Of a stretch of 64,000 bases of DNA, positions 4,292 through 62,774 are shown one piece after another. Origin of the DNA: a virus; the IMG/VR virus record IMGVR_UViG_3300021598_001001, positions 1 through 64,000 of that record, one strand, 5' to 3'. The first letter of the stretch is position 1. Each line of letters begins with the position of its first letter. The notes below the pieces were generated by a model. It worked only from the letters and a program-made list of their open reading frames with translations. It was not told the origin of the DNA and made no database searches. The position numbers and the translations under genes are program-made.

Positions 4292-4448
4292 TAAAGTTAT
4301 TGACGCAATTTCTAATGAAATATATCTATTAAATGTTTCTAATGAAAGTTGGAATGAAGACTCTGCTAAAAAAACTTCTCGCAGAATTCTTGAAATAGTA
4401 GAAGAATTCCAGAGAATTAAATATAAAACAATTAATGATAATCTATGA
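4278..4448 (+). CDS. Small acidic helical protein before kdsB
   Basis: 56 residues (MTNYDKVIDAISNEIYLLNV at the start), probably two helices. AAGGAG (4264-4269) is a suitable ribosome site. Its TGA overlaps the kdsB ATG (ATGA), so translation is coupled. No family recognised. Confidence 0.6.
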   Translation: MTNYDKVIDAISNEIYLLNVSNESWNEDSAKKTSRRILEIVEEFQRIKYKTINDNL

Positions 4449-5146
4449 ACGCTACTATTGTTATTCCTGCAAGAATTGAAAGTTCTCGTTTACCGAAGAA
4501 AGTTTTATCTGATATTGGAGGTAAAACCTTAATTCAGAGAGTGGTAAACCAGTGTATGATTACTGGTCTGGAAACTTATGTAATCACAGATAGTTTTGAA
4601 GTTTATGAGTCTGTTAGAGACACTAAAGTGAAAGTAGTCTTACAACAAGCCGAAGCCTCTAGTGGAACAGAACGCATTTCTAATGTGATGACATCTATTC
4701 CTGGAGAAAAAATTATTAATGTTCAAGGTGATCAACCATTCATTTCACCAGAAGCTATTTTGGAAATGAATGAGCATCTCCTTAAAGAAAATTATGATGT
4801 TGTTACTCCGTATAAACTATATGATAAAAATAGTAAGTACGGAAAGTCTCAAGATAAACCAAAATTAGTTACTAGTCAATCTGGAAAAGTTCTATATTTT
4901 AGTAGACATCCTATTGGAACTGATCAACTAAAAATTCATATGGGAATATATGGATACACTAGAAATTTTTTAGAGAATTTTAGTCAATTAAAAACCTCCC
5001 AGTTGGAAGAGACTGAGAGGTTGGAACAACTACGGTTTCTTGATAATGATGTTTCTGTTTTTTCTTATGAAACAGAACATGATGTGTTTTCTGTAGACAC
5101 CCCAGAAGACTTAGAAGACGCTAGAGAGATAGTTCGGAAACTCTGA
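4445..5146 (+). CDS. kdsB: 3-deoxy-manno-octulosonate cytidylyltransferase (CMP-Kdo synthetase)
   Basis: 233 residues, slightly below the usual ~250. It transfers CMP from CTP to Kdo, activating the sugar for transfer into LPS or another glycan. Family motifs appear in order: VIPARIESSRLPKK (6-19, nucleotide loop), SGTERIS (73-79), NVQGDQPF (92-99, metal and CTP site), YFSRHPIG, HMGIYGYTR, LEQLRFL and VDTPEDLE at the end. Together they separate it from CMP-sialate synthetases. The gene is coupled to a small upstream ORF. Its 3' end overlaps the convergent kdsA by 36 bp. Kdo-8-P phosphatase and arabinose-5-P isomerase are not seen in the window, so the host would have to supply those steps. 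Confidence 0.93.
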   Translation: MNATIVIPARIESSRLPKKVLSDIGGKTLIQRVVNQCMITGLETYVITDSFEVYESVRDTKVKVVLQQAEASSGTERISNVMTSIPGEKIINVQGDQPFISPEAILEMNEHLLKENYDVVTPYKLYDKNSKYGKSQDKPKLVTSQSGKVLYFSRHPIGTDQLKIHMGIYGYTRNFLENFSQLKTSQLEETERLEQLRFLDNDVSVFSYETEHDVFSVDTPEDLEDAREIVRKL

Positions 5147-5845
5147 TAAAGGAATCTGACAATCCTTGTCTGAGAGTGCCTCAGAGGGCTTAGGATGCAC
5201 TTCTACAAACAGTGCATCAGTTCCCCAAACGAGAGCACTCTTGGACAATTTTTCTGCATACTTCCAGTTTCCACTTGTAACAGAGTCTCCTCCTTCCTGA
5301 GTAGAGTGTGTTGCATCAAAACATACTTTGAATCCTGCATTCTTAAGAATATCAATTGTTCTAAAGTCTACTACTAAGTTGTCATATCCAAAACAACTTC
5401 CTCTTTCGCAAATATAAAAATCTTCACAACCATACGATTCCATCTTTTCTCCAAGAAGAATTGCATTTCTAGGAGAAATAAATTGTCCTTTTTTTACATT
5501 TACTAGTTTTCCACTTTTTGCAACAGCTTCTAATAGTTCCGACTGTCTACACAAAAATGCTGGAACTTGGAATGCATCTACATAATCATGAAATAAATCT
5601 ACTTGATTTGGTAAGTGTATGTCAGTGATAATTTTATACCCAGACGTTCTGAGTTCTGAGAATACGTCCATTGCGTATCCATAACCTTTTCCAGTAAAAC
5701 TATTATGACTTGATCTGTTTGCTTTCTCGAAAGAAGTTTTGAAGTAAAAGTCTACGTGTTTTGGGATGTATTTTGAAATTGTTTTTGCAACTTCAAAACA
5801 AACCTCTCCGGATTCTAGAGCACAAGGACCTGCAAATAATTTCAT
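5111..5845 (-). CDS. kdsA: 2-dehydro-3-deoxyphosphooctonate aldolase (Kdo-8-phosphate synthase)
   Basis: 244 residues against the usual ~280. It condenses phosphoenolpyruvate with arabinose-5-phosphate to Kdo-8-phosphate. Motifs: GPCALES (6-12), KTSFEKANRSS (36-46), TDIH (74-77), QVPAFLCRQ (93-101), KKGQF (118-122), ERGSCFGYDNLVVD, DATHS and VHPKPSEALSD. Cys8 in GPCALES is the metal ligand of the metal-dependent class; metal-independent enzymes have Asn there. The later His, Glu and Asp ligand segments are also present. It lies alone on the minus strand among plus-strand genes, tail to tail with kdsB and head to head with an amidinotransferase. A DAHP synthase is less likely given QVPAFLCRQ and the length. 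Confidence 0.93.
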   Translation of the reverse strand: MKLFAGPCALESGEVCFEVAKTISKYIPKHVDFYFKTSFEKANRSSHNSFTGKGYGYAMDVFSELRTSGYKIITDIHLPNQVDLFHDYVDAFQVPAFLCRQSELLEAVAKSGKLVNVKKGQFISPRNAILLGEKMESYGCEDFYICERGSCFGYDNLVVDFRTIDILKNAGFKVCFDATHSTQEGGDSVTSGNWKYAEKLSKSALVWGTDALFVEVHPKPSEALSDKDCQIPLSEFPNYLSSVF

Positions 5846-5879: not shown

Positions 5880-6770
5880 ATGAGTAAATATTTTCCAGAA
5901 TATAACAAACTTAAAGAATGTTGGGTGGGTAGGGCCTACTCGTCCGATCTCGTTGAAGATTCTTTTATCAAAGAAATTCTTGATGAAACTGAAGAAGATC
6001 TAAAAAACTTTTCAGAAGTATTGGAAACATTTGGTGTTGTAGTTAAAAGACCGACATATAAAAATCCAGATGTAACAAAAAAACCTCAACTACTACATGC
6101 AAGAGATCACCTACAATATATTAATAATAAGTTGTATGTTGGTCCTAGATATGAAGAAAATATCATTGATTGGTTGGAGTTGTTAGATCATAGAAGTAAC
6201 TATATTACGTTAGATAATCTTTGTGCTCCTAGTGTTATCCGAGCTGATCGAGTTTATTTTGATGCAGTTGCATGGACGAGAAAGAGATTCGATTACTTTA
6301 AAAATGCAAATCCTGAAGTGGAATGTATTTATGAAAGATTTTCTTGTAGGGATTTTAATATCGAACGACACACAGATGGAGTCTTTGTGGTTGTAAAAGA
6401 AGGTGTAATCATATCTACACCTCAAGGTCGTAACTTGGAACATTGTTTTCCTGGGTGGGATATTTTGTACTTGGAACACAATACTCAAGACATTAAGGCT
6501 ATGGATATGACCAAAGATAAATTTGTTTGGTCCCCAAATCAAATTCCGTATGAGTATAAAGATTGGGTAGGATATTCTCCAGAAACTTTTTTTGATGTTA
6601 ATGCTCTTCAATTAGATTCAGAACATCTAATGGTTACTAGATATAACAAACAAGTTTTCGAGTTTCTGGAAAAACATAATGTTGAACCAATCATTGTTCC
6701 CTTTAGGCATAGGTATTTGTGGGATGGGGGACTACATTGTATGACATTTGACTACCTACGAGAAGAGTGA
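5880..6770 (+). CDS. Amidinotransferase-family protein (GATM/StrB-like)
   Basis: 296 residues, somewhat shorter than Arg:glycine amidinotransferase. This family uses a Cys-His-Asp triad in a five-fold pseudo-symmetric propeller to move an amidino group from arginine to an amine. Visible landmarks: N-terminal EYNKLKECWVG, Asp in VYFDAVAWTRKR (~residue 127), His in ERHTDGVFVVV (~residue 162) and the nucleophile Cys in GGLHCMTFDY near the C-terminus. It overlaps the following oxygenase-like gene by 4 bp. A second family member lies at 19726-20694 but is well diverged, so this is not a recent duplication. The acceptor amine is unknown; deiminase or hydrolase activity within the superfamily cannot be excluded. 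Confidence 0.75.
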   Translation: MSKYFPEYNKLKECWVGRAYSSDLVEDSFIKEILDETEEDLKNFSEVLETFGVVVKRPTYKNPDVTKKPQLLHARDHLQYINNKLYVGPRYEENIIDWLELLDHRSNYITLDNLCAPSVIRADRVYFDAVAWTRKRFDYFKNANPEVECIYERFSCRDFNIERHTDGVFVVVKEGVIISTPQGRNLEHCFPGWDILYLEHNTQDIKAMDMTKDKFVWSPNQIPYEYKDWVGYSPETFFDVNALQLDSEHLMVTRYNKQVFEFLEKHNVEPIIVPFRHRYLWDGGLHCMTFDYLREE

Positions 6771-11976: not shown

Positions 11977-11993
11977 ATTTTTTGGAGATTATT

Positions 11994-15003: not shown

Positions 15004-15019
15004 AATTTTTTTGTTTGTT

Positions 15020-16228
15020 ATGAATAATCTAAATCCTTCCATCAAGGTAAACAATTATCTTGTTGTCAAAAATTTTATAGACATTAAAAGATCTAAAAGT
15101 TTATCAGATGAGTTTAATTCTTTCTGTGATAAAAATAATGTACTTGGTGACGATCAGGCTTTAAACTCGTCCTCGGTATACAATTATATTTCTTTCTTAG
15201 AACTTCTTTGTGAAAAAACTCCAGAGATTAGTAAAATCTGTGGGGAAACTGTATTGCCTACTTATTCTTATGCCAGAACTTATCGAAAGGGCAGTGTTTT
15301 AAAAAAACACACTGATAAAGATCAATGTGAAGTATCATTGACTGTTAACTTAGGTAGTGATCGGCCGTGGTTAATTTGGATTGAAACTCCCAATAGTGAT
15401 AAACATAATATTATGTTGTCTCCTGGAGATGCATTACTGTATATGGGATGCGATGCACCTCACTGGAGAGATGAATATGATGGTGAATGGTACACACAAG
15501 TATTCCTGCATTATGTTTTCAGTCGTGGAAATAGAGTTAATAGTTATTTTGATAAAAGTCATTTAGGGATAAATTGTGATCAACATGGAAATAAAGTTGA
15601 AAAAACTTTAGAAGAAAGTAAAATTATAAAAACTCCAGAACTTATAGTTAAACCTAGTATTAGAAGTCAAACAAAGCTAGAAGATTTTATTGTTGTTTTA
15701 GATTCTTTAGTATCAGATGAACTTTGTAATAAAATTATATCTGAATATAAAGATTGTGACTTATGGAAAGATACAAGTGTCGGCGGTGGTGAAGTAAATC
15801 CAAACGTTAGAAGTTGTTCAGTATTGAATATTAGTGAAGAAAATACCTTACAGTACAATACACAATATAGAAAACAACTTGATTCAGATTTCTTTCTTTC
15901 CGCTTCACAAGCCCTTCAGAAGTATAAAGAAAAATTTCCTGATGCAAATGTAGATATAGATACTGGATATGATCTACTCAGATATAAAGAAGGTCAATTT
16001 TATATTCAACATACAGATTCATTTAAATTACAACAAAGAGCAATTAGTTGTTCATTCAGTTTGAATGATGATTATGAGGGTGGTGAATTTGCATTTTTTG
16101 ATAGAGAGATAGTTATTAAGACTAAAAAGGGAGACGCCATTCTCTTCCCATCAAACTTTATGTATCCGCATGAAGTTATGCCTGTTACTTCAGGAACAAG
16201 ATATTCTATTATAACTTGGTATGTCTGA
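15020..16228 (+). CDS. Tandem 2-oxoglutarate/Fe(II) dioxygenase (two domains)
   Basis: 402 residues from ATG 15020; an in-frame TTG at 15011 is less likely. Domain 1 (~1-185) has LKKHTDKDQCEVSLTVNLG (His-x-Asp) and PGDALLYMGCDAPHWRDE (distal His). Domain 2 (~215-402) has YIQHTDSFKLQQRAISCSF, GGEFAFFD, KGDAILFPSNFMYPHEV and Arg in SGTRYSIITW, a full prolyl-4-hydroxylase-like iron and 2-oxoglutarate set. Domain 1 lacks an obvious 2OG-binding Arg at the expected place and may be inactive or differ in mechanism. Fusion of two such domains is unusual. It overlaps the GT25-like gene by 8 bp, suggesting action on the same glycan or protein. Confidence 0.75.
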   Translation: MNNLNPSIKVNNYLVVKNFIDIKRSKSLSDEFNSFCDKNNVLGDDQALNSSSVYNYISFLELLCEKTPEISKICGETVLPTYSYARTYRKGSVLKKHTDKDQCEVSLTVNLGSDRPWLIWIETPNSDKHNIMLSPGDALLYMGCDAPHWRDEYDGEWYTQVFLHYVFSRGNRVNSYFDKSHLGINCDQHGNKVEKTLEESKIIKTPELIVKPSIRSQTKLEDFIVVLDSLVSDELCNKIISEYKDCDLWKDTSVGGGEVNPNVRSCSVLNISEENTLQYNTQYRKQLDSDFFLSASQALQKYKEKFPDANVDIDTGYDLLRYKEGQFYIQHTDSFKLQQRAISCSFSLNDDYEGGEFAFFDREIVIKTKKGDAILFPSNFMYPHEVMPVTSGTRYSIITWYV

Positions 16229-17003
16229 AAAACTTAAAGGACTTCCTACCATATACTATCTAAATGTTGATAGTAAAACAGAAAGAAAAGAATACATGGA
16301 ATCCCAATTCGATAAATGGGAAATTTCAAATGTAACTAGATTTTCTGAAGGTATTTTTTATCCGGAGAATTTTAAAGAGTGGGAAAGTCTTGTTTATAAA
16401 AGTGAAATATACAAAGAACAAGACTACTTAAAGGTTTGTATAAATCTTTCCACATTGGAAATGGTTAGACATTGGTTAGAGAATACGAATGAAAAATATC
16501 TTATTTTGTTTGAAGATGATTATGATCTGAACCTAATAGAATACTGGCATTTTGATTGGAAATATCTAATGACTCATCTTCCATATGATTGGGACTGTAT
16601 TCAATTGGGATTTGAATCTCATAATTATATTTCATTCTTTCTGCACCCAAAAACAAGCCATAGTTTTTATGGACCAGTATTAATAAATCGACACTTTGCA
16701 CAAAAGTTAATCGATATCCACACGATCAAGGGAAAATATTCCTTTATCCATAACTATGGTCCAGAATATTTTTATAGATGTCTAGGATTAGATCAGTTTT
16801 TTGGATTTGTTGGTAAGACATATCAGATTCCTTTGATTACACAAAACCCAAATCTAGATGAGATTCCAAAGAAACATCATTTCATTTGTAGAGATCTTTA
16901 TTATAATTGGTGGAAAAACAATAGAGATGATTTTACCCTAAAGGATTTTTTCACATACGGTAAAAAATATGATCATCTAATGACTGTACCGGTTGTTGAA
17001 TGA
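16221..17003 (+). CDS. GT25-like glycosyltransferase, copy 1
   Basis: 260 residues. The start GLPTIYYLNVDSKTERKEYME matches the N-terminal motif of family 25 (LPS glycosyltransferase). LILFEDDYDLN (~94-104) provides the EDD metal/sugar-nucleotide motif, followed by YWHFDWKYLMTHLPYDWDCIQLGF. It is the first of three tandem paralogs in overlapping or abutting frames. GT25 enzymes add galactose, glucose or related sugars to LPS core or protein. No membrane segment, so cytoplasmic. Acceptor unknown. Confidence 0.75.
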   Translation: MSEKLKGLPTIYYLNVDSKTERKEYMESQFDKWEISNVTRFSEGIFYPENFKEWESLVYKSEIYKEQDYLKVCINLSTLEMVRHWLENTNEKYLILFEDDYDLNLIEYWHFDWKYLMTHLPYDWDCIQLGFESHNYISFFLHPKTSHSFYGPVLINRHFAQKLIDIHTIKGKYSFIHNYGPEYFYRCLGLDQFFGFVGKTYQIPLITQNPNLDEIPKKHHFICRDLYYNWWKNNRDDFTLKDFFTYGKKYDHLMTVPVVE

Positions 17004-17800
17004 CTGAATCGAAATTAAAAGATATTCCTCCAATTTATTACTTGAATTTGGATCATAGAGTAGAAAGAAAGCTGTATATTGAAAATCAGTTTAGAAAGTA
17101 TAATATTAAAAATTATACTAGAATTTCTGCCTCACGTTATGACCCAAAAAATTATTCTGAGTGGAAGTCAAAAATAATTGCGGATGATATTTTAACTCAA
17201 CCGCAATTTCTTTCTGTATTATTGAATAGGATACAGAGTATTGTGGATTGGTATAACTCAAATACATCTGAAGTTTGTATGATGATAGAGGATGATCTAT
17301 CATTTGATACGGTAGAATACTGGGACTTTAATTGGAAAGATATCTTTAACAAACTTCCTTGTAATTGGGATTGCATTCAATTTCATATCATAGGCGAGAG
17401 GTATATTCCAATGTTCTTATCGAAGTGGACTAAGAACAATCATGCTGCAACTTGTTTTATGATAACAAGATCTTATGCAGAGAAAATGATAAGATTGCAC
17501 TATGACAATGGATTCTTTAAATTTTATACAAACTATGGATTAAGTGAAAAATGGCCAAAGTATCATTATCAATCTGGTGATTTTGTTCCATATCAAATAG
17601 GCGTTACTTATTCCCTACCCCTCTTCATATCGAATTCTCATTTTATAAGTGATGGTTATTTGGATAAACCAAACCATCTAGCTAAAAAGTCTGATGAAGT
17701 TGTTTTAGATTGGTGGAAAAATAAGAGTACAAACTACAATATATGTGATATAATGTCTATAGATTCTGTCAATAAAAACGATCTATTAATAAAGTTATAG
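17000..17800 (+). CDS. GT25-like glycosyltransferase, copy 2
   Basis: 266 residues, paralogous to both neighbours: DIPPIYYLNLDHRVERKLYIE at the N-terminus, MMIEDDLSFDTVEYWDFNWK around the EDD motif, and DWDCIQF-type sequence after it (NWDCIQFHI). Divergence is well beyond recent duplication, with a shorter middle and different C-terminal half, implying different sugar or acceptor preference. It overlaps copy 1 by 4 bp. Confidence 0.72.
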   Translation: MTESKLKDIPPIYYLNLDHRVERKLYIENQFRKYNIKNYTRISASRYDPKNYSEWKSKIIADDILTQPQFLSVLLNRIQSIVDWYNSNTSEVCMMIEDDLSFDTVEYWDFNWKDIFNKLPCNWDCIQFHIIGERYIPMFLSKWTKNNHAATCFMITRSYAEKMIRLHYDNGFFKFYTNYGLSEKWPKYHYQSGDFVPYQIGVTYSLPLFISNSHFISDGYLDKPNHLAKKSDEVVLDWWKNKSTNYNICDIMSIDSVNKNDLLIKL

Positions 17801-17801
17801 T

Positions 17802-18653
17802 ATGAATTTAAAAGATAAACTTAAAGGATTGCCAACGATTTATTATTTAAATCTTGACGAAAGACCTGATAGAAAACAATATACTGAAGAACAATACGAA
17901 AAATATAAAATTAGTAACTTTAAAAGGTTTTCTGCTTCTAGTTATCAACTTCAAAATTTTGATGAATGGAAAAGTAAAGTAATACTGAATGATATTTCAA
18001 CATGTAAAAGGTGGAGACAACATTTAATAGAAGTAGCTACTGCTCTTTCCACTATTGATATGCTCAAAAGTTGGTTGGAAAATACAATTGAAGAATATGT
18101 TATCTTAATGGAAGATGATTATGATTTAAGTTATATTGATTATTGGCATTTTGATTGGGAATACTTGATGAATAACATTCCTTTCGATTGGGATTGTATT
18201 CAACTGGGTTTTGAAAATGAAAAAATTATTCCATGTTATCTACATCCAATATTGTCTGGACATGATAGTGGAGCTGCATTGATAAGAAGAAGTTACGCAG
18301 AAAAATTAATAAGACTTTTTTGTGTAGATGAAAAGTATAATCTTGCTCATAAAATTTCAAATTGGAAATGGTCGATAGGACTAGATATACCTAATGTAAC
18401 TATAGATTATTTCCTAATACATAGTGGAAGAACTTATTCAATGCCTTTGATAAGTGTAAATCCAGATATTGGTAGTTATTCGGTAAATTATGTAAGATCT
18501 GATAGACCTGATTTAGTTCTTGCTAGGAAGGCTTATAAGAAATGGTGGACCGTTCTGAGAGATGATTATACATTAGAAGAGTTTTTCATGTATGGAAAAC
18601 CAAATGATAGAGTTATAACACCTAGAGAACCCGACATTGATAAGTATGTTTGA
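17802..18653 (+). CDS. GT25-like glycosyltransferase, copy 3
   Basis: 283 residues, closer to copy 1 than to copy 2: GLPTIYYLNLDERPDRKQY, VILMEDDYDLSYIDYWHFDW and FDWDCIQLGFENEK. It begins one base after copy 2 and overlaps the aminotransferase-like gene by 8 bp. The three-gene array suggests stepwise assembly of a short glycan. Confidence 0.75.
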   Translation: MNLKDKLKGLPTIYYLNLDERPDRKQYTEEQYEKYKISNFKRFSASSYQLQNFDEWKSKVILNDISTCKRWRQHLIEVATALSTIDMLKSWLENTIEEYVILMEDDYDLSYIDYWHFDWEYLMNNIPFDWDCIQLGFENEKIIPCYLHPILSGHDSGAALIRRSYAEKLIRLFCVDEKYNLAHKISNWKWSIGLDIPNVTIDYFLIHSGRTYSMPLISVNPDIGSYSVNYVRSDRPDLVLARKAYKKWWTVLRDDYTLEEFFMYGKPNDRVITPREPDIDKYV

Positions 18654-19236
18654 AAAAGTAAATGAGTTTGAAAACAAAGTCGCAGAATATTTCTCAGCCC
18701 CATATGCTGTAGCTGTAGACTCATGTACACATGCAATAGAATTATGTCTTAGACATACTTCATGCAATAATTTGACTATTCCAACTAACACTTATGTTTC
18801 TATTCCAATGACTTTAATGAAATTGGAATTGAATTGGACATGGAGAAATGAAGACTGGGAAGATTATTATCAACTAGGCAATTCAAATATTATTGACGCT
18901 GCTGTACTATGGAAAGAAAATAGTTATATTCCTGACACCTACATGTGCCTTAGTTTCCAGTATAAAAAACATCTTAGTGTTGGTAGGGGTGGAATGATTC
19001 TGTTGCAAAACAAAAATGACTATGATATACTAAAGAAAATGTCTTACGATGGTAGAGATGTTTCTAAGCCTTGGGCTAAACAAGACATTGATACCGTAGG
19101 TTATCATTATTATATGACTCCAGAGACAGCTATCTTGGGTTCTTTTAGGTTTAATGAAGTTCGTGATAAACAACCTAAAAAATGGACTTATCTAGATTAC
19201 CCACACTTACCTGACATGTCTGTGTTTAAATGTTAA
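18646..19236 (+). CDS. Short DegT/DnrJ/EryC1/StrS-type aminotransferase
   Basis: 196 residues from ATG 18646 (an upstream TTG was not used), about half the normal ~370. PLP-fold landmarks are present: YAVAVDSCTHAIELCLR, TIPTNTYVSIP, IIDAAVLW (Asp84 for the pyridine nitrogen) and SFQYKKHLSVGRGGMIL with the Schiff-base Lys (107 or 108), then MTPETAILG. The C-terminal domain is missing; the frame ends normally and overlaps the next gene by 7 bp with no sign of a frameshift. Full-length relatives put amino groups on nucleotide sugars or cyclitols. Whether this minimal version is active is uncertain. Confidence 0.7.
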   Translation: MFEKVNEFENKVAEYFSAPYAVAVDSCTHAIELCLRHTSCNNLTIPTNTYVSIPMTLMKLELNWTWRNEDWEDYYQLGNSNIIDAAVLWKENSYIPDTYMCLSFQYKKHLSVGRGGMILLQNKNDYDILKKMSYDGRDVSKPWAKQDIDTVGYHYYMTPETAILGSFRFNEVRDKQPKKWTYLDYPHLPDMSVFKC

Positions 19237-19736
19237 ATCATATAAAACCTAATTGGAATATCAAAGATTTTTATAATCTAGACTACGTTTTGTCTACACA
19301 TAAAGATGAAGAGTTGGTTAACCAATATTTAAGTTCTGGTCACAGTGAGGAAAAATTATCTATATACAAGTACCAACAACCAGATCCAATGCCAAAGTGC
19401 GTTGAGGAATATATCATTCCTCAATTTTATTTTTTAGATAAAGTTGGCGCAGCAGTAAATTATTTTAAACCAGGACAATATCTACCTCTTCATACAGATC
19501 TTTTTGGTAAATATCTAGAAATTAATAACATAGGATCTGAAAATGTTATTAGATGTATGGTTATGTTGGAAGATAATTCTCCAGGCCAAATTTTGCAAGT
19601 GAAAGATACTTGTTACTGTGATTGGAAGGCTGGTGATTGTTTTTACTGGAACTATGATGAAATCCATGCATTTTATAATTTCAGTATGAAAGATAGATAT
19701 GCAATTCAAGTAACTGGAGTATTAAATGAACAATAG
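19230..19736 (+). CDS. Cupin-type 2OG/Fe(II) oxygenase-like protein
   Basis: 168 residues. YLPLHTDLF gives His-x-Asp. CDWKAGDCFYWNYDEIHAFYNFS gives the distal His, and Arg in MKDRYAIQVTG could bind 2-oxoglutarate. The arrangement resembles aspartyl/asparaginyl beta-hydroxylase-type cupins. It sits between and overlaps both the aminotransferase-like and amidinotransferase genes, so a shared small-molecule pathway is likely. Substrate unknown. Confidence 0.6.
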   Translation: MLNHIKPNWNIKDFYNLDYVLSTHKDEELVNQYLSSGHSEEKLSIYKYQQPDPMPKCVEEYIIPQFYFLDKVGAAVNYFKPGQYLPLHTDLFGKYLEINNIGSENVIRCMVMLEDNSPGQILQVKDTCYCDWKAGDCFYWNYDEIHAFYNFSMKDRYAIQVTGVLNEQ

Positions 19737-20694
19737 TACTAATGAGTGGGGAAGATTAAAAAAGGTTATTGTGGGTATTGCAGATTATGCAAGAGTGCCT
19801 GAAATGGATCGTAGTCTGAGATTGATTAACTATGCAGATCGTGAAGATGTTTCCGATGTAAAGTCAGGATTATATCCTGATCAAGTTATACAAGAAGCTA
19901 ATGAAGATCTAGAAATCTTCGCAAACTTCTTAAGACAAGAGGGAGTAGATGTAGTAAGACCTCATAGTGAACCAACAGGATATTATAATTTCTGTCCCAG
20001 AGATTGTATATTCATCCATGGAAATAACTATTTTGCAACTCCAATGCCCCTAAAGGCTAGGAGGTATAATTTTGGTTCAATCGCTCATCATTTTGATGGA
20101 TTAGTTCCATTAACTTGTACCTATGATGACAAATTGTATAATGATGAATGTCTAGGGAATAAAGATGTTTTAGCACTCACTGAACACTCTCCTGCTTTTG
20201 ATGCTGCCAATATTATTAGGGCTAATGATCATGTTTTATATCTAGTTTCTAATAGTGGAAACATTTCTGGTGCGAATAAACTTCAACAAGTTTTGGGTCC
20301 AGACATTCAAGTTCATTTACTTCAAGGTGTGTATAGTTATATGCACATTGACACAACAATTGCATTTCTAAGAGAGGGATTATTATTGGCTAATCCAGAA
20401 AGGATTAAGAGTAAAGATGTTCTTCCTGCACCATTTAAAAATTGGGATGTAATTTGGTGCCCAGAACCTGTTGACATTGGATACTATCCAGGTTATAATC
20501 ATGCCTCAACATGGATTAACATGAATCTTTTTAGTGTCAATCCTAATCTCGTTGTTTTAGAAGAACATCAAGAACCAACAAGAAAAGAGTTAGAAAAATA
20601 TGGTATAGATTGTGCCATGCTTCCTATGAGACACTCAAGAACTTTAAGTGGGTGTTTCCATTGTGTAACTTTAGATTTAGAAAGAGATGACTGA
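19726..20694 (+). CDS. Arg:amine amidinotransferase (GATM/StrB-like)
   Basis: 322 residues, close to family length. NEWGRLKKVIVG opens the fold. YNFCPRDCIFIHGN and SPAFDAANIIRAND (catalytic Asp) follow, then YMHIDTTIAFLREGLLLANPERI (catalytic His) and SGCFHCVTLDLERDD (nucleophilic Cys ~315). The complete triad supports transfer of the amidino group from arginine to an amine. Members make guanidinoacetate, guanidinylated inosamines of streptomycin, or toxin precursors. The adjacent StrS-like aminotransferase favours an amino-sugar or aminocyclitol acceptor, but this is inference. It overlaps both neighbours by about 10 bp. Confidence 0.88.
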   Translation: MNNSTNEWGRLKKVIVGIADYARVPEMDRSLRLINYADREDVSDVKSGLYPDQVIQEANEDLEIFANFLRQEGVDVVRPHSEPTGYYNFCPRDCIFIHGNNYFATPMPLKARRYNFGSIAHHFDGLVPLTCTYDDKLYNDECLGNKDVLALTEHSPAFDAANIIRANDHVLYLVSNSGNISGANKLQQVLGPDIQVHLLQGVYSYMHIDTTIAFLREGLLLANPERIKSKDVLPAPFKNWDVIWCPEPVDIGYYPGYNHASTWINMNLFSVNPNLVVLEEHQEPTRKELEKYGIDCAMLPMRHSRTLSGCFHCVTLDLERDD

Positions 20695-20866
20695 AAATAC
20701 TCCTATACATCCCAGTGGATTAAATATTATCCAAAATGATGACGGCTCTTTTGCTTTTGAGTGGGATAAAAACGATGAACGATGGTCTTGGCTAAATGAC
20801 TTGACAGATGATCAAATTAAGATTATTATGGAACAAGCAATCAAGGACTTGACCGATGGACTTTGA
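20687..20866 (+). CDS. Small conserved-type cyanophage protein
   Basis: 59 residues with NIIQNDDGSFAFEWDKNDERW followed by an acidic helix. Overlaps the genes on both sides by 8-11 bp. Function unknown. Confidence 0.6.
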   Translation: MTENTPIHPSGLNIIQNDDGSFAFEWDKNDERWSWLNDLTDDQIKIIMEQAIKDLTDGL

Positions 20867-24195: not shown

Positions 24196-24522
24196 ATGGG
24201 AAAGCACTATCTTCTTAACTTGTTTGGATGCTCATTCGCTCACTTGAACGATGAGCATTTTCTTATGGATCTCTTAGAAAATGCAGCAGCTGCAAGTGGA
24301 GCAACTGTATGTCAAACTATCTTTAAAAAATTTGATCCACAAGGAGTAACTGTACTCTGTTTATTATCTGAGAGTCATATAAGTATTCATACTTGGCCGG
24401 AAGATGGTAAAGCCGCATGTGATGTTTATACATGTGGAGATTGTAATCCAAAAATAGGATGTGATATAATAATTGCACAACTAAATGCAACAAATCACAC
24501 ACTAAGTTATATTGAGCGTTAA
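24196..24522 (+). CDS. speD: S-adenosylmethionine decarboxylase proenzyme
   Basis: 108 residues, the short prokaryotic class. SESHISIHTWPE contains the self-cleavage site: Glu59-Ser60, with Ser60 becoming the pyruvoyl group. The His pair and DVYTCGDCNP complete the family signature. It makes decarboxylated SAM for spermidine synthesis; polyamines help package DNA. Cyanophages often carry this gene. AGGAGG at the end of the previous gene supports the start. A late-type motif follows for the next gene. Confidence 0.93.
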   Translation: MGKHYLLNLFGCSFAHLNDEHFLMDLLENAAAASGATVCQTIFKKFDPQGVTVLCLLSESHISIHTWPEDGKAACDVYTCGDCNPKIGCDIIIAQLNATNHTLSYIER

Positions 24523-40073: not shown

Positions 40074-40261
40074 CAATGGCTCACATTGATTTGGAAGCCT
40101 ATTATCGTATTAATTTTGCTCTCATGCAGTTCCATAAATACTCTTTGACTGAGGTTGAAAATTTAATGCCTTGGGAAAGAGATATCTATCTTGCCCTATT
40201 GAAACAACATATTGAAGAAGAAAACTTAAAGGCACAACAGGCGGCAAATCGTGGCAATTAA
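40070..40261 (+). CDS. 51: gp51-like baseplate hub assembly catalyst
   Basis: 63 residues. LEAYYRINFALMQFHKYSLT followed by EVENLMPWERDIYLALLKQH is the short form typical of cyanophages; T4 gp51 is longer. Probably acts once in hub assembly and may not remain in the virion. It overlaps gp26 by 4 bp and the next gene by 11 bp. Confidence 0.85.
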   Translation: MTMAHIDLEAYYRINFALMQFHKYSLTEVENLMPWERDIYLALLKQHIEEENLKAQQAANRGN

Positions 40262-42014
40262 ATCACCACTAAATCCAGGAGTTATTGCTAGAGAACGTAG
40301 AGTTACACCAGAAGCAGTTCAGAACTTTATTTCTGGTGGTTCTCCTCTTGGATCTTCTGTGGTTGCTAGTGCTGCTAACAAAATTGTAGGATTTCAAAGA
40401 GGAACTGCTGGAGTTGCTCCACAAGTTCCAGATCTTGGTTCGATCATTAATACTTTATCATCAAATATTTTAAACAATGTTGAGAATAGAGTACAAGCAA
40501 TAACTCAAAATGTAAATCAGATTGTTCAAAAAACTGTAGGAGATTTACAAAATAGATTTATTTCTAAAACAGATTCTATTGATGCAAACGCTCCGAATAA
40601 AATTTTATCCAATTTCTTGAGTTTATATGATAAAGCAATTGGATATATAAGATTTTTTGCAAATCCAAATAATATAAAAAGTCTAAATGAAAGTTTAGTA
40701 GAACTCAGGAAAGTATTCGATGAAACTTTCAAAGTCGCTAAAAGCATTCGTCAAACAATTATAAGAATAGTCGATCAACTTTCCAATCTACCTACAGCTA
40801 ATGCAGGAGGTGGTGGAATAGATTTGGATGTTAAAGTTCCAGGCCCACCATTAAAAAGAGCGGGAAACACTGGAATATTAAGGTCTATGAGAAGACGCCC
40901 TGGATTAATGTTGGGTGGTGCTGCTCTTGCTGGTGCAGGCACTGGAGCAATGGTGACCAATGCTCTTCAAGACGTTGGCGGTGGAGTTCAACCTCAGTTA
41001 ATGGGAGAAACTGGTGAAGGATTATCTGGACCATTACTAGACAAGTTTAATGCAATATTAGATAGATTTTCTGCTGTTCTAAAGTCATTATCAACGAGAC
41101 CATCAAAACAACAACCTGGAGGAGGAAAATCCACATCTACACAAGCGAAAGATGGAGCTCGAGGAGCTACAGGAGCACCTGGAGCACCTGGTGTTTCTGG
41201 ATCACCTGGTGTTACTACGACTGGAGAAAAGGGGGTATTAGATCTTATTGCTTCAGTCGAACAAGGTCCAGAGGGATATGATAGTTTTAATACAAGTGCA
41301 GGAAAAACTCCCGGTAAGGCTACAGAGCAAACGATTGGGTGGTTGGCTAAAAACGCACGAGGAGCAATTGGTAGATATCAACAAATGCCCCAATATCTAT
41401 TGGAAAGAGCGCAAAGAGCTGGATTCAATGCAAATACAAAATTTACACCAGAAGTTCAAGATGCAATAACACTAAACGAATTAAGATCAAGTCATGGAAT
41501 AAATGAGTTTTTATCCGGTAAAATATCAGAAGAACAATTTTTACAAAAACTTGCTCCAACATGGAGAGGATTGCCTCAGGGAAAAATTAATGCTGCAAAA
41601 CTAGGCGGAACAGCAGATTTAACATATCAAGATCAATATTCTGGAAGAAATCTTGCTGGCAAAACATATGCAACTACTATTTCCGAATTGAGAAATATTA
41701 GATCAGGTGGTAATAAACCAGTCGCATCAACTCAACAACGAAATAAACCGGCAGTTGTTGCCGCTCCAGCACAACAACAAATGCAACAACAATCTGCACA
41801 ACAGGTTGCACAAGTTCCTGTAACACAATCGCAACCACAAGTAAATATTCTTCCTTTGCAAGGTGGAGGTGGAAATCAACAAGGAACCGCAAAACCACCT
41901 CAAGCACCTATAACAGGCATTAGAGGAGAAACTGTTCCAATGTTACCCACCACAAATCCTGATAATTTCCTTACATTATATTCTAAAATGGTTTACAACA
42001 TCGTTGACGGATAA
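40251..42014 (+). CDS. Large virion protein with lysozyme-like domain
   Basis: 587 residues. N-terminal helices (~60-180) and a Gly/Ala membrane-like segment (MLGGAALAGAGTGAMVTNAL, ~220-240) precede a collagen-like stretch of Gly-x-x (~301-325, GARGATGAPGAPGVSG). Residues ~328-441 resemble a phage muramidase: VLDLIASVEQGPEGYDSFNT (Glu possible catalytic residue), then GAIGRYQQMPQYLLERAQRAG and FTPEVQDAITLNELR. A Gln-rich tail follows. T4 carries its tail lysozyme inside gp5; the gp5-like protein here lacks it, so this neighbour may provide that function. Confidence 0.7.
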   Translation: MAIKSPLNPGVIARERRVTPEAVQNFISGGSPLGSSVVASAANKIVGFQRGTAGVAPQVPDLGSIINTLSSNILNNVENRVQAITQNVNQIVQKTVGDLQNRFISKTDSIDANAPNKILSNFLSLYDKAIGYIRFFANPNNIKSLNESLVELRKVFDETFKVAKSIRQTIIRIVDQLSNLPTANAGGGGIDLDVKVPGPPLKRAGNTGILRSMRRRPGLMLGGAALAGAGTGAMVTNALQDVGGGVQPQLMGETGEGLSGPLLDKFNAILDRFSAVLKSLSTRPSKQQPGGGKSTSTQAKDGARGATGAPGAPGVSGSPGVTTTGEKGVLDLIASVEQGPEGYDSFNTSAGKTPGKATEQTIGWLAKNARGAIGRYQQMPQYLLERAQRAGFNANTKFTPEVQDAITLNELRSSHGINEFLSGKISEEQFLQKLAPTWRGLPQGKINAAKLGGTADLTYQDQYSGRNLAGKTYATTISELRNIRSGGNKPVASTQQRNKPAVVAAPAQQQMQQQSAQQVAQVPVTQSQPQVNILPLQGGGGNQQGTAKPPQAPITGIRGETVPMLPTTNPDNFLTLYSKMVYNIVDG

Positions 42015-61655: not shown

Positions 61656-62774
61656 ATGCCTATAACCAGAGACATTTTCAGAGCAACAATGGAAGGTGGT
61701 GGAAGTGTAACTTTCATTGCTCCTGACACTTCAAATTTTGAAACTACCTGGACAACACCTGCGAAAATTTCAAAAGTTTCTGTTGAAGGTGAAGGTGGTG
61801 TTGGAAATCCAGGTGGTGAAGGAATTGCTGGATCTGGAGGAAATGCTGGTGTAGGTAATGATGGAAACGCAGGCCGCTGCGGTGGTGGCGGAGGTGGTGG
61901 TGGTGCATGTTCAACCGCAGGAGATTTTAGAACCCAAGATGGTGCCTCAGGAAATCCCGGTACTTTTCCTGGAGGAGGTGGAGGTGCTGGAGGAGCAAAA
62001 CGAGCTTCACTAAGTTACGGTACTTCCCCTAGACCCTCAGCAACTGCCACTGCAGGTTCTTCTGGTGGTGGCGGTACAAATGGAAATCCAGGCACTACTA
62101 CTTCTGCAGGTTCTGGTGGTTCTGGTGGTTTTGGTCCTAGTGGTAACCCAGGAAGAGCTAGTACTGTTTTTGGAATATCCTTTCCAGGGGGAGCTGGAGG
62201 TTCTGGTGGATCCGGAAATAATGGTACTCCAGGAACTAATGGTGGGGCTGGTACTGGTGGAGCCGGTGGTTCTGGTGGTGGCGGCGGCGGAGCTGGAAGT
62301 ATTAATGCTGGAACATTTACTTCGGCTAGTGGAAATACTAGTTTCGGTGGTCCTGGTGGATTGGGAGCAGGAGACATATTTCCCGTAGTTTCATCCAGAA
62401 CAGGAAATCCTGGAGGCAGTGGACCCGGAAGAACGGGTACAGGTACTGCGACTGGCGGAGGAGGTGGAGGCGGCGGCTTCGCGGCCGACGGTCAACGTGG
62501 CGGCGATGGTGGTTCAGGTGGATCAGTAACCCCACCAACAAATGCTCCACAGATCAAATCTGCTGGCGGTGGAGGAGGTGGAGGAGGTGCTTCAAATCCA
62601 GGTAATGCAGGATTTGATGGTGATTTTGGAAATCCAGGAGATTCTAATCCCGGTAATGATGGAAGTCCAGCAAATCCAACTACTGCAAGTGATATTGCAG
62701 TTACCCCTCTAACTAATTATCCAGTTTCTGTTGCTGCTGGTGGATACATAACAATCACTTGGGGTTCCCAATAA
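61656..62774 (+). CDS. Glycine-rich adhesin-like tail protein
   Basis: 372 residues. A strand-rich ~50-residue N-terminus (GGGSVTFIAPDTSNFETTWT) leads into ~300 residues dominated by Gly, Ser, Asn, Pro and Ala (GNPG and GGSGG units). Such sequence forms bundled polyglycine-II helices in the gp38 adhesin at the tip of S16-type phage fibres, and loops between the helices bind receptor. It ends VAAGGYITITWGSQ, a closing strand. Located after the long fibre gene. Codon choice is shifted to GGT/GGA with some GC-rich Gly runs. The adhesin function is inferred. Confidence 0.6.
   Translation: MPITRDIFRATMEGGGSVTFIAPDTSNFETTWTTPAKISKVSVEGEGGVGNPGGEGIAGSGGNAGVGNDGNAGRCGGGGGGGGACSTAGDFRTQDGASGNPGTFPGGGGGAGGAKRASLSYGTSPRPSATATAGSSGGGGTNGNPGTTTSAGSGGSGGFGPSGNPGRASTVFGISFPGGAGGSGGSGNNGTPGTNGGAGTGGAGGSGGGGGGAGSINAGTFTSASGNTSFGGPGGLGAGDIFPVVSSRTGNPGGSGPGRTGTGTATGGGGGGGGFAADGQRGGDGGSGGSVTPPTNAPQIKSAGGGGGGGGASNPGNAGFDGDFGNPGDSNPGNDGSPANPTTASDIAVTPLTNYPVSVAAGGYITITWGSQ

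What the first reader, a model, noticed from the sequence alone, without database searches (positions are those of the whole stretch)
18646..20694. Overlapping trio: StrS-like aminotransferase, cupin dioxygenase, amidinotransferase
Three genes overlap by 7-11 bp. Seen: a PLP-type aminotransferase core with Lys107/108, a His-x-Asp...His cupin, and an amidinotransferase with its full Asp/His/Cys triad. Known: in streptomycin-type pathways DegT/StrS aminotransferases make aminocyclitols that StrB amidinotransferases guanidinylate. Inferred: the phage may make a guanidinylated amino sugar, perhaps added to a glycan by the three GT25-like enzymes directly upstream. I know of no described phage pathway of this kind.
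Basis: partly seen in the sequence, partly recalled or inferred. Interest (0 to 1): 0.85.

Follow-up and report, generated by a model that had tools for sequence, protein, structure and literature searches.

The report
Phage genes for a guanidino sugar
A cyanophage carries three overlapping genes that look like a small assembly line putting an amine, and then a guanidine-type group, on a sugar; the aminotransferase is an unusually small, phage-typical version, and how the product is used is not known.

Summary
The trio is real and non-random. (1) 18646-19236: a 196-aa compact DegT/StrS-type protein that keeps the PLP residues and catalytic Lys108, lacks about half of a normal DegT enzyme, yet is predicted to fold well (pLDDT 95.6). 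(2) 19230-19736: a 2OG-Fe(II) hydroxylase-like oxygenase (HxD..H plus Arg), not a recognised cupin. (3) 19726-20694: an amidinotransferase of the StrB1 class (216 bits to StrB1, 115 to AGAT; Z 43.0 against about 38) with an invariant Asp/His/Cys triad. Of 23 dereplicated phage amidinotransferase loci with enough flank, 22 also hold the compact DegT, 20 the oxygenase and 18 glycosyltransferases, in differing arrangements. A second branch of compact DegT, in immuto-like phages, is mostly followed by a NeuD-type sugar N-acetyltransferase instead. This suggests a layout: make a sugar amine, then cap it (acetyl or amidino). Aminocyclitol (streptomycin) chemistry, the acceptor and the final target (host surface glycan or virion) are unproven; no activity was measured. 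Novelty: a new variant of phage glycan-modification clusters; the half-size aminotransferase is the most unusual part.

The parts
18646..19236 (+). compact DegT/StrS-type PLP protein (196 aa), probable sugar aminotransferase
   Evidence: PF01041 62.9 bits (cut-off 19.8) in two pieces (scanned from the upstream TTG at 18637); T28, D84, S103, K108 invariant in 29 sequences; AF2 pLDDT 95.6, best PDB matches DegT sugar aminotransferases
19230..19736 (+). 2OG-Fe(II) oxygenase of Asp/Arg-hydroxylase type (168 aa)
   Evidence: PF05118 6.8e-4, below cut-off; H88-x-D90, H146, R156 invariant in 17 sequences
19726..20694 (+). StrB1-class L-arginine amidinotransferase (322 aa)
   Evidence: 1BWD StrB1 7.3e-63, 216 bits; Foldseek 9.6e-32 and Z 43.0 to 1BWD; D159/H207/C313 invariant in 21 sequences
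17802..18653 (+). GT25-like glycosyltransferase, overlaps the compact DegT gene by 8 bp
   Evidence: phrog_2835 5.4e-41; PF01755 3.4e-4, below cut-off
17000..17800 (+). GT25-like glycosyltransferase
   Evidence: phrog_2835 3.2e-38
16221..17003 (+). GT25-like glycosyltransferase
   Evidence: phrog_2835 9.3e-35
15011..16228 (+). two-domain 2OG-Fe(II) oxygenase at the head of the array (start codon uncertain, TTG as listed)
   Evidence: PF13640 8.5e-20 in the C-terminal half; phrog_3531 and phrog_2954 best over the N-terminal half

Best explanation
A phage-encoded module for making a guanidino sugar. The compact DegT-type PLP enzyme puts a primary amine on a keto sugar or similar ring (inferred). 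The StrB1-class enzyme moves the amidino group of L-arginine onto that amine, releasing ornithine (class well supported, acceptor inferred). The oxygenase hydroxylates the sugar or its carrier (inferred, weakest step). The GT25-like enzymes transfer the decorated sugar (inferred). No gene of the array has a membrane-like segment by a simple hydropathy scan, so assembly is probably cytoplasmic, on host lipid A-core or surface-glycan precursors or on a virion protein. The likely benefit is a changed, more cationic surface: receptor masking, superinfection exclusion, or adhesion and protection of the virion (inferred).
For: Class of the amidinotransferase: StrB1 216 bits against HsvA 134 and AGAT 115; Z 43.0 against 37.6-39.3 for SxtG, AGAT and HsvA, and 25.9 or less for deiminases. 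In the printed alignments the loop before the catalytic His is one residue shorter than in AGAT and HsvA, as in StrB1. Linkage: mini-DegT in 56 of 57 amidinotransferase loci with over 4 kb upstream and 2.5 kb downstream; of 23 dereplicated clusters, mini-DegT in 22, oxygenase 20, GT 18, radical SAM 13, carbamoyltransferase 9, counted anywhere in the locus, while the rest of the neighbourhood varies; in 67 of 76 linked loci at most one + strand ORF lies between the pair. Glycan neighbours: NAD epimerase 3, GDP-mannose dehydratase 3, carbamoyltransferase 2, UDP-glucose dehydrogenase 2, GT47 2, sulfotransferase 1, besides radical SAM 6 and 2OG oxygenases, of 69 other neighbours scanned (69 of the 98 listed; one protein can match several families; 25 of 39 families shown). 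Swap of cap: in the immuto branch the mini-DegT is followed by a NeuD/PglB/VioB-type sugar acetyltransferase (TIGR03570, 1.8e-45) as the next gene in 48 of 80 loci, and one is in the locus in 58 of 69 with over 3 kb downstream; no amidinotransferase in those loci and no such acetyltransferase in the 162 records held before.
Against: No activity or product was measured. The mini-DegT lacks most of the small domain that in full DegT enzymes helps to hold the substrate (recalled). L037 and its near copy L043 have the amidinotransferase but no mini-DegT in the stretch held. Conversely mini-DegT occurs without the amidinotransferase: 18 of 80 loci, 6 of 47 flanked ones, among them loci with GTs only (L116, L124), and a 642-kb phage stretch, L249. 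The acetyl/amidino split could merely follow phage lineage. No sugar context was shown for the cellular relatives: in 41 of 80 cellular loci the next ORF is a protein of 1,106-1,707 aa of unproven function (start seen for three). The phage clade sits on a long branch with no firm sister.
Confidence: 0.5

Rival explanations
1. The enzyme guanidinylates a small metabolite (glycine as in creatine-type metabolism, an amino acid, or a polyamine made with the help of phage speD), and its place beside the glycan genes is incidental.
For: AGAT and HsvA (a polyamine amidinotransferase by its PDB title) are also full-length relatives; speD lies 3.5 kb downstream; several phage relatives are annotated as possible glycine amidinotransferase, as is a gene in a table of viral genes in PMC8226683 (passage).
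Against: Closer to StrB1 in sequence and fold; AGAT and HsvA sit in a separate supported clade (99/98) without the phage proteins; speD is present in only 31 of 80 amidinotransferase loci and 7 of 23 flanked clusters (loci reach about 8 kb from the gene), against mini-DegT in 75 of 80.
Confidence: 0.15
2. The mini-DegT is not an aminotransferase: it binds PLP or a sugar without catalysis, or does another PLP reaction (for example dehydration or epimerisation) or serves as a subunit of the amidinotransferase.
For: 196 aa; parts of the large domain and most of the small domain have no counterpart in the alignment; full-length DegT genes lie in the same clusters in some phages (labelled in 15 of the 84 records; two in L135, one of them labelled there), so it is not simply replacing them.
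Against: Catalytic Lys, PLP Asp and phosphate-binding Thr/Ser positions invariant in 29 sequences (roles recalled), Lys also in 78 sequences of the distant immuto branch; paired there with a sugar acetyltransferase of a family that often acts on amines (activity recalled).
Confidence: 0.25
3. The module modifies phage DNA or nucleotides (hypermodified bases) rather than a glycan.
For: 2OG oxygenases, glycosyltransferases and carbamoyltransferases are known tailoring enzymes of phage DNA hypermodification (recalled).
Against: No C5-cytosine methylase (PF00145) and no thymidylate-synthase-type starter (PF00303) in the 162-kb record, which may be incomplete; several neighbours are nucleotide-sugar enzymes.
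Confidence: 0.05
4. Carried LPS-type genes with no current function ('stuffer' DNA), as was raised for cyanophage LPS clusters.
For: Named as a possibility in PMC3037559 (passage read).
Against: Triad and PLP residues kept in diverse phages; linkage kept while surroundings change; all three genes intact and overlapping here.
Confidence: 0.05

Closest known systems
StrB1, L-arginine:inosamine-phosphate amidinotransferase (Streptomyces griseus, PDB 1BWD)
   Same: fold (Z 43.0, 318 residues, rmsd 1.7), Asp/His/Cys triad, FDAAN stretch, S-x-SGN stretch, loop length before the catalytic His
   Different: 37-39% identity in the structure alignments; the phage proteins form a clade of their own; the partner is a half-size DegT, and no streptomycin-type cyclitol genes were recognised in the array
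DegT/DnrJ/EryC1/StrS sugar aminotransferases (perosamine synthase 3DR4, WlaRG 5U1Z, sugar transaminase 7B0D)
   Same: fold of the retained core (Z 19.4, 187 residues, rmsd 2.4 for 7B0D and 5U1Z; 3DR4 best by Foldseek), PLP residues and catalytic Lys
   Different: 196 aa instead of about 360-400; N-terminal arm, part of the large domain and most of the small domain without counterpart
PglE-PglD, VioA-VioB, PerA-PerB type aminotransferase plus N-acetyltransferase pairs (recalled)
   Same: immuto-branch mini-DegT followed by a NeuD/PglB/VioB-type acetyltransferase
   Different: in the window branch the partner is an amidinotransferase
Campylobacter phage CP220/CPt10 radical-SAM clusters with a putative glycine amidinotransferase (PMC2853527)
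   Same: phage gene cluster with an amidinotransferase relative, radical SAM and nucleotide-sugar-transferase-like genes
   Different: 24% identity, far branch in the tree; no mini-DegT labelled in the 21-kb stretch of CP220
Synechococcus phage S-SCSM2R (GenBank PQ898602)
   Same: all three genes (58%, 66%, 78% identity) in a glycosyltransferase array
   Different: a radical SAM and a GT gene lie between the DegT and the oxygenase, and a GT2 follows
LPS-type gene clusters of cyanophages and pelagiphages (PMC3037559, PMC9602691, PMC7029224)
   Same: glycosyltransferases and nucleotide-sugar enzymes in phage genomes, in pelagiphages in the region of the tail-fibre genes (passages read)
   Different: 'aminotransferase' gave 0 occurrences in the main text of these three papers; PMC9602691, PMC3037559 and PMC7029224 were not searched for 'amidinotransferase' individually

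Membership tests
L-arginine amidinotransferases (StrB/AGAT) | catalytic Asp, His and Cys | tested here: met
   D159, H207, C313 invariant in 21 phage sequences, window included
L-arginine amidinotransferases (StrB/AGAT) | full-length pentein fold closer to amidinotransferases than to deiminases | tested here: met
   Z 37.6-43.0 for amidinotransferases, 25.9 or less for deiminases and DDAH
L-arginine amidinotransferases (StrB/AGAT) | amidino transfer from arginine to an amine | not testable with these tools
   needs an enzyme assay
StrB1 (inosamine-phosphate) subclass | closest to StrB1, with the shorter loop before the catalytic His | tested here: met
   216 bits against 101-134 for HsvA, AGAT and SxtG; one residue fewer than AGAT and HsvA in the printed alignments
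StrB1 (inosamine-phosphate) subclass | grouping with StrB1 in a tree | tested here: inconclusive
   phage clade 100/100 on a long branch, sister not resolved; AGAT and HsvA in a separate 99/98 clade
StrB1 (inosamine-phosphate) subclass | inosamine-phosphate as acceptor | not testable with these tools
   needs an enzyme assay
DegT/DnrJ/EryC1/StrS aminotransferases | PF01041 match above the gathering score | tested here: met
   62.9 bits against 19.8; 34.3 and 27.5 bits as two separate pieces
DegT/DnrJ/EryC1/StrS aminotransferases | catalytic Lys and PLP-binding positions | tested here: met
   K108, D84, S103, T28 invariant in 29 sequences; roles by alignment and recall
DegT/DnrJ/EryC1/StrS aminotransferases | complete two-domain enzyme of about 360-400 aa | tested here: not met
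   196 aa; model columns 15-76 and 166-240 of 360 matched; alignment. So: works like a DegT enzyme (likely), not filed as a standard member
cupin | match to a cupin model | tested here: not met
   no cupin family up to E 0.1 in Pfam; 0 NCBIfam families
2OG-Fe(II) oxygenases (Asp/Arg hydroxylase type) | HxD...H iron ligands and a downstream Arg | tested here: met
   H88, D90, H146, R156 invariant in 17 sequences
2OG-Fe(II) oxygenases (Asp/Arg hydroxylase type) | curated Pfam score | tested here: inconclusive
   PF05118 19.9 against 22.6 bits; best PDB profile hit only E 0.059
Glycosyltransferase family 25 | PF01755 above cut-off | tested here: inconclusive
   matched by one of three genes, 21 against 24 bits; all three match phrog_2835
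streptomycin-type aminocyclitol pathway | inosose-forming dehydrogenase, kinase and full-length StsC-type aminotransferase | tested here: inconclusive
   no full-length DegT in the record and none of these among the Pfam hits for 15011-20694; dehydrogenase and kinase not searched in the whole record

The most novel reading that the evidence does not exclude
Marine and freshwater phages carry a family of half-size sugar aminotransferases (to my knowledge among the smallest proteins of the DegT fold) that work with interchangeable amine-capping enzymes: an N-acetyltransferase in one branch and a StrB-type amidinotransferase in the other. The second branch would be a phage-encoded route to N-amidino (guanidino) sugars, in part of these phages perhaps O-carbamoylated as well, displayed on the infected cell or on the virion.
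Probability: 0.4. Interest if true: 0.78.

Novelty: new variant of a known kind. Interest (0 to 1): 0.62.

Why it matters
Phage glycosyltransferase clusters are common and mostly unexplained. A module with a nameable chemistry (amine, then amidine from arginine) gives a mass and a charge that can be looked for directly, in an isolated phage-host pair (S-SCSM2R and Synechococcus WH7803). The half-size DegT would show how little of this large enzyme fold is needed for sugar transamination, and the acetyl/amidino exchange would show how phages diversify surface sugars.

Tried and rejected
DNA hypermodification: searched the 162-kb record for PF00145 and PF00303, no match; the record may be incomplete. 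Collagen-like virion targets for the oxygenase/GT25 genes: a G-x-y scan (six or more repeats) of the joined record gave two ORFs, 40251-42014 and 61656-62774, with short stretches; not pursued. A polyamine link through speD: speD present in only 31 of 80 amidinotransferase loci.

Cellular pairs: one genome scan confirmed 89 stretches and kept 80 loci. In the neighbourhood listing, which shows five ORFs on each side, the only mini-DegT label was in L229, a contig filed under a Chloroflexi MAG that reads like a phage contig. No AT-type ORF was labelled in 8 of 80 loci (L165, L182, L216, L222, L227, L230, L231, L238), probably because ORF picking dropped it, so a mini-DegT there could be missed in that listing; 69 cellular rows went into the tree.

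The mini-DegT model against viral predicted structures gave 7 hits at E up to 0.001, all longer than 300 residues. Profile search of the oxygenase against the PDB gave nothing below E 0.059. Literature: 10 searches in open PubMed Central text listed no paper describing this phage pathway; of the listed papers I read passages of six and only titles and abstract starts of the rest. S-SCSM2R gave 0 papers. Subscription journals and preprints are not covered.

Loci selection: counts mix loci fetched by the amidinotransferase and by the mini-DegT (DegT in 38, oxygenase 33, GT 27, radical SAM 15 of 39 clusters); less biased counts are those (amidinotransferase query only). In one search the misses were L002, L005, L018, L020, L037 and L043 of 82; L005, L018 and L020 hold little upstream sequence. 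The acetyltransferase count used a profile built here (E 1e-5, ORFs of 100 aa or more), so distant acyltransferases could be missed. For the neighbour scan I gave 69 of the 98 dereplicated proteins listed. The tree has long branches (L213, L002 and others), flagged by the program.
Full report
WHAT IS THERE. The window is part of a 162,060-base virus record that reads as a T4-like cyanophage (SpeD match at 24196; transaldolase at 11982; photosystem and T4-type structural genes recognised by eye). The three genes are intact, on the + strand at 18646-19236, 19230-19736 and 19726-20694, overlapping by 7 and 11 bp; the first also overlaps the upstream gene by 8 bp. They close an array that begins with a two-domain 2OG-Fe(II) oxygenase (15011-16228) and three phrog_2835 'glucosyltransferase' genes.

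GENE 1, A COMPACT DegT. The 196-aa product matches PF01041 above its cut-off, but as two pieces covering model columns 15-76 and 166-240 of 360. In an alignment of 29 phage sequences 47 positions are invariant, among them T28, D84, S103 and K108, the positions of PLP contacts and the catalytic lysine by alignment with DegT enzymes (roles recalled). Lys107 varies. AlphaFold2 gives pLDDT 95.6 and pTM 0.91. The best PDB matches are sugar aminotransferases: perosamine synthase 3DR4 at 2.7e-10 by Foldseek, and 7B0D and WlaRG 5U1Z at Z 19.4 over 187 residues, rmsd 2.4. So it looks like a folded, conserved, reduced DegT rather than a decaying fragment. Of 77 copies, 71 are 194-206 aa long; three shorter ones are 127-141 aa and three longer ones 228-234 aa.

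GENE 2, AN OXYGENASE. No cupin model matches; the nearest are Asp_Arg_Hydrox and 2OG-FeII_Oxy_3, both below cut-off. H88-x-D90, H146 and R156 are invariant in 17 sequences.

GENE 3, AN AMIDINOTRANSFERASE. Against the PDB by sequence: StrB1 7.3e-63 (216 bits), HsvA 134 bits, AGAT 115 bits, SxtG 101 bits. By predicted structure (pLDDT 90.4): StrB1 E 9.6e-32 and Z 43.0, SxtG 39.3, AGAT and HsvA about 38, deiminases 25.9 or less. D159, H207 and C313 are invariant in 21 phage sequences. The loop before the catalytic His is one residue shorter than in AGAT and HsvA, as in StrB1 (alignments). In a tree of 95 rows, 22 of 23 phage proteins form one clade (100/100); AGAT and HsvA sit in another (99/98); the sister of the phage clade is not resolved, and the Campylobacter phage relative lies far apart on a long branch.

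IS THE TRIO A MODULE? In 80 viral loci fetched with the amidinotransferase alone (best 80 of 197), the mini-DegT was found in 75 by tblastn; of 57 loci with over 4 kb upstream and 2.5 kb downstream, in 56, the exception being L037; its near copy L043, with 3.2 kb upstream, lacks it too. After dereplication at 90% identity, 23 flanked clusters remain (pairwise identity down to 61%): mini-DegT in 22, oxygenase 20, GT 18, radical SAM 13, carbamoyltransferase 9, counted anywhere in the locus. The order and the other genes vary: only the pair is labelled in L065/L066, while L072, L073, L075 and L077-L082 have mini-DegT, SGNH-like gene, amidinotransferase, oxygenase. This is hard to explain by one inherited block alone, although the phages are related. 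Among 69 other neighbours Pfam finds nucleotide-sugar enzymes, carbamoyltransferases, radical SAM proteins and 2OG oxygenases, besides phage genes such as PhoH. The converse is looser: 62 of 80 mini-DegT loci, and 41 of 47 flanked ones, hold the amidinotransferase, and this sample leans towards relatives of the window.

A SECOND BRANCH WITH ANOTHER CAP. The mini-DegT of the isolated Flavobacterium phage vB_FspM_immuto (28% identity) lies in an annotated glycosyltransferase cluster. Its relatives keep the catalytic lysine (invariant in 78 sequences). The next gene is a NeuD/PglB/VioB-type sugar acetyltransferase in 48 of 80 loci, and one is in the locus in 58 of 69 with over 3 kb downstream. 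The immuto copy scores 155 bits to TIGR03570 (1.8e-45), just under the curated 160.8, with Hexapep and PglD_N in Pfam. No amidinotransferase was found in these loci, and no such acetyltransferase in the 162 records held before, which overlap in part. The simplest common reading is that the mini-DegT makes a sugar amine and the partner caps it. The split also follows phage type, so lineage alone could produce it.

MECHANISM, WITH STATUS OF EACH STEP. Amine formation by the mini-DegT: inferred from residues, fold and partners. Amidino transfer from arginine: well supported as a class, not assayed. Acceptor is the mini-DegT product: inferred from linkage. Role of the oxygenase: a guess. Transfer by GT25-like enzymes: inferred from the array; a loose EDD-type motif is found in 395 of 431 homologues of these and related GT labels, which is weak evidence as the pattern is short. 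Destination: open; no protein of the array has a membrane-like segment (highest 19-residue hydropathy 1.18), and the LPS-type genes of cyanophages and pelagiphages have been proposed to alter the host surface (passages of PMC9602691 and PMC7029224), or left open (PMC3037559).

WHAT IS KNOWN. Of 50,697 phage records only Synechococcus phage S-SCSM2R matches all three genes (records very near the window may be left out by the tool); it carries them in a similar array. Campylobacter phages have a distant relative in radical-SAM clusters, reported as a putative glycine amidinotransferase without a pathway in the passages read (PMC2853527). A global ocean survey of viral metabolic genes discusses GAMT and mentions GATM for creatine synthesis (PMC11360552, passages). 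My ten literature searches listed no description of a phage guanidino-sugar route; subscription papers and preprints were not searchable.

VERDICT. Observation real with corrections; interpretation supported in outline; chemistry and target unproven.

Noticed in passing
window 5880-6770 (+): A second, divergent amidinotransferase-like protein (296 aa; weak, mainly C-terminal match to StrB1/HsvA/AGAT) beside KdsB (4445-5146), KdsA (5111-5845, minus strand) and a 2OG oxygenase; S-SCSM2R has the same block, this protein at 76% identity.
   Followed up: partly
L025:9811-11328 and 32 other loci: A carbamoyltransferase gene is in the same locus as the amidinotransferase in 33 of 80 loci (9 of 23 dereplicated), hinting at O-carbamoyl decoration of the same product.
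   Followed up: partly
L152:7558-9333, L153:8336-10057: The trio's oxygenase is fused to a further domain of about 400 aa (L152: no Pfam family); similar-looking stand-alone proteins lie beside the oxygenase or amidinotransferase in L072, L141, L149 and L159 (similarity by eye).
   Followed up: no
L125:5290-6603: Mini-DegT fused behind an N-terminal domain that resembles the preceding gene by eye, a possible natural fusion.
   Followed up: no
L037:6620-7030, L043:1878-2288, L068:8963-9373: A 136-aa protein near or next to the amidinotransferase; the L068 copy scores 39.7 bits to the WbuC-like cupin model TIGR04366 (cut-off 42). L037 and L043 also have a GDP-mannose-dehydratase-like gene by eye.
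   Followed up: no
cellular loci, for example L190 and L196: In 41 of 80 cellular loci the amidinotransferase relative is directly followed by an ORF of 1,106-1,707 aa; in three of them the start, seen by eye, resembles an adenylation domain.
   Followed up: no
L229: A contig filed under a Chloroflexi MAG reads like a phage contig and holds a divergent mini-DegT, an amidinotransferase and a carbamoyltransferase-like gene (the last by eye).
   Followed up: no
window 20471-20499 and 20801-20829 (+): A perfect TTGACA-17-TATAAT match inside the amidinotransferase gene and an 11-of-12 match before the gene at 20856; the total number of matches in the region is as expected by chance (42 against 41.3).
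   Followed up: no
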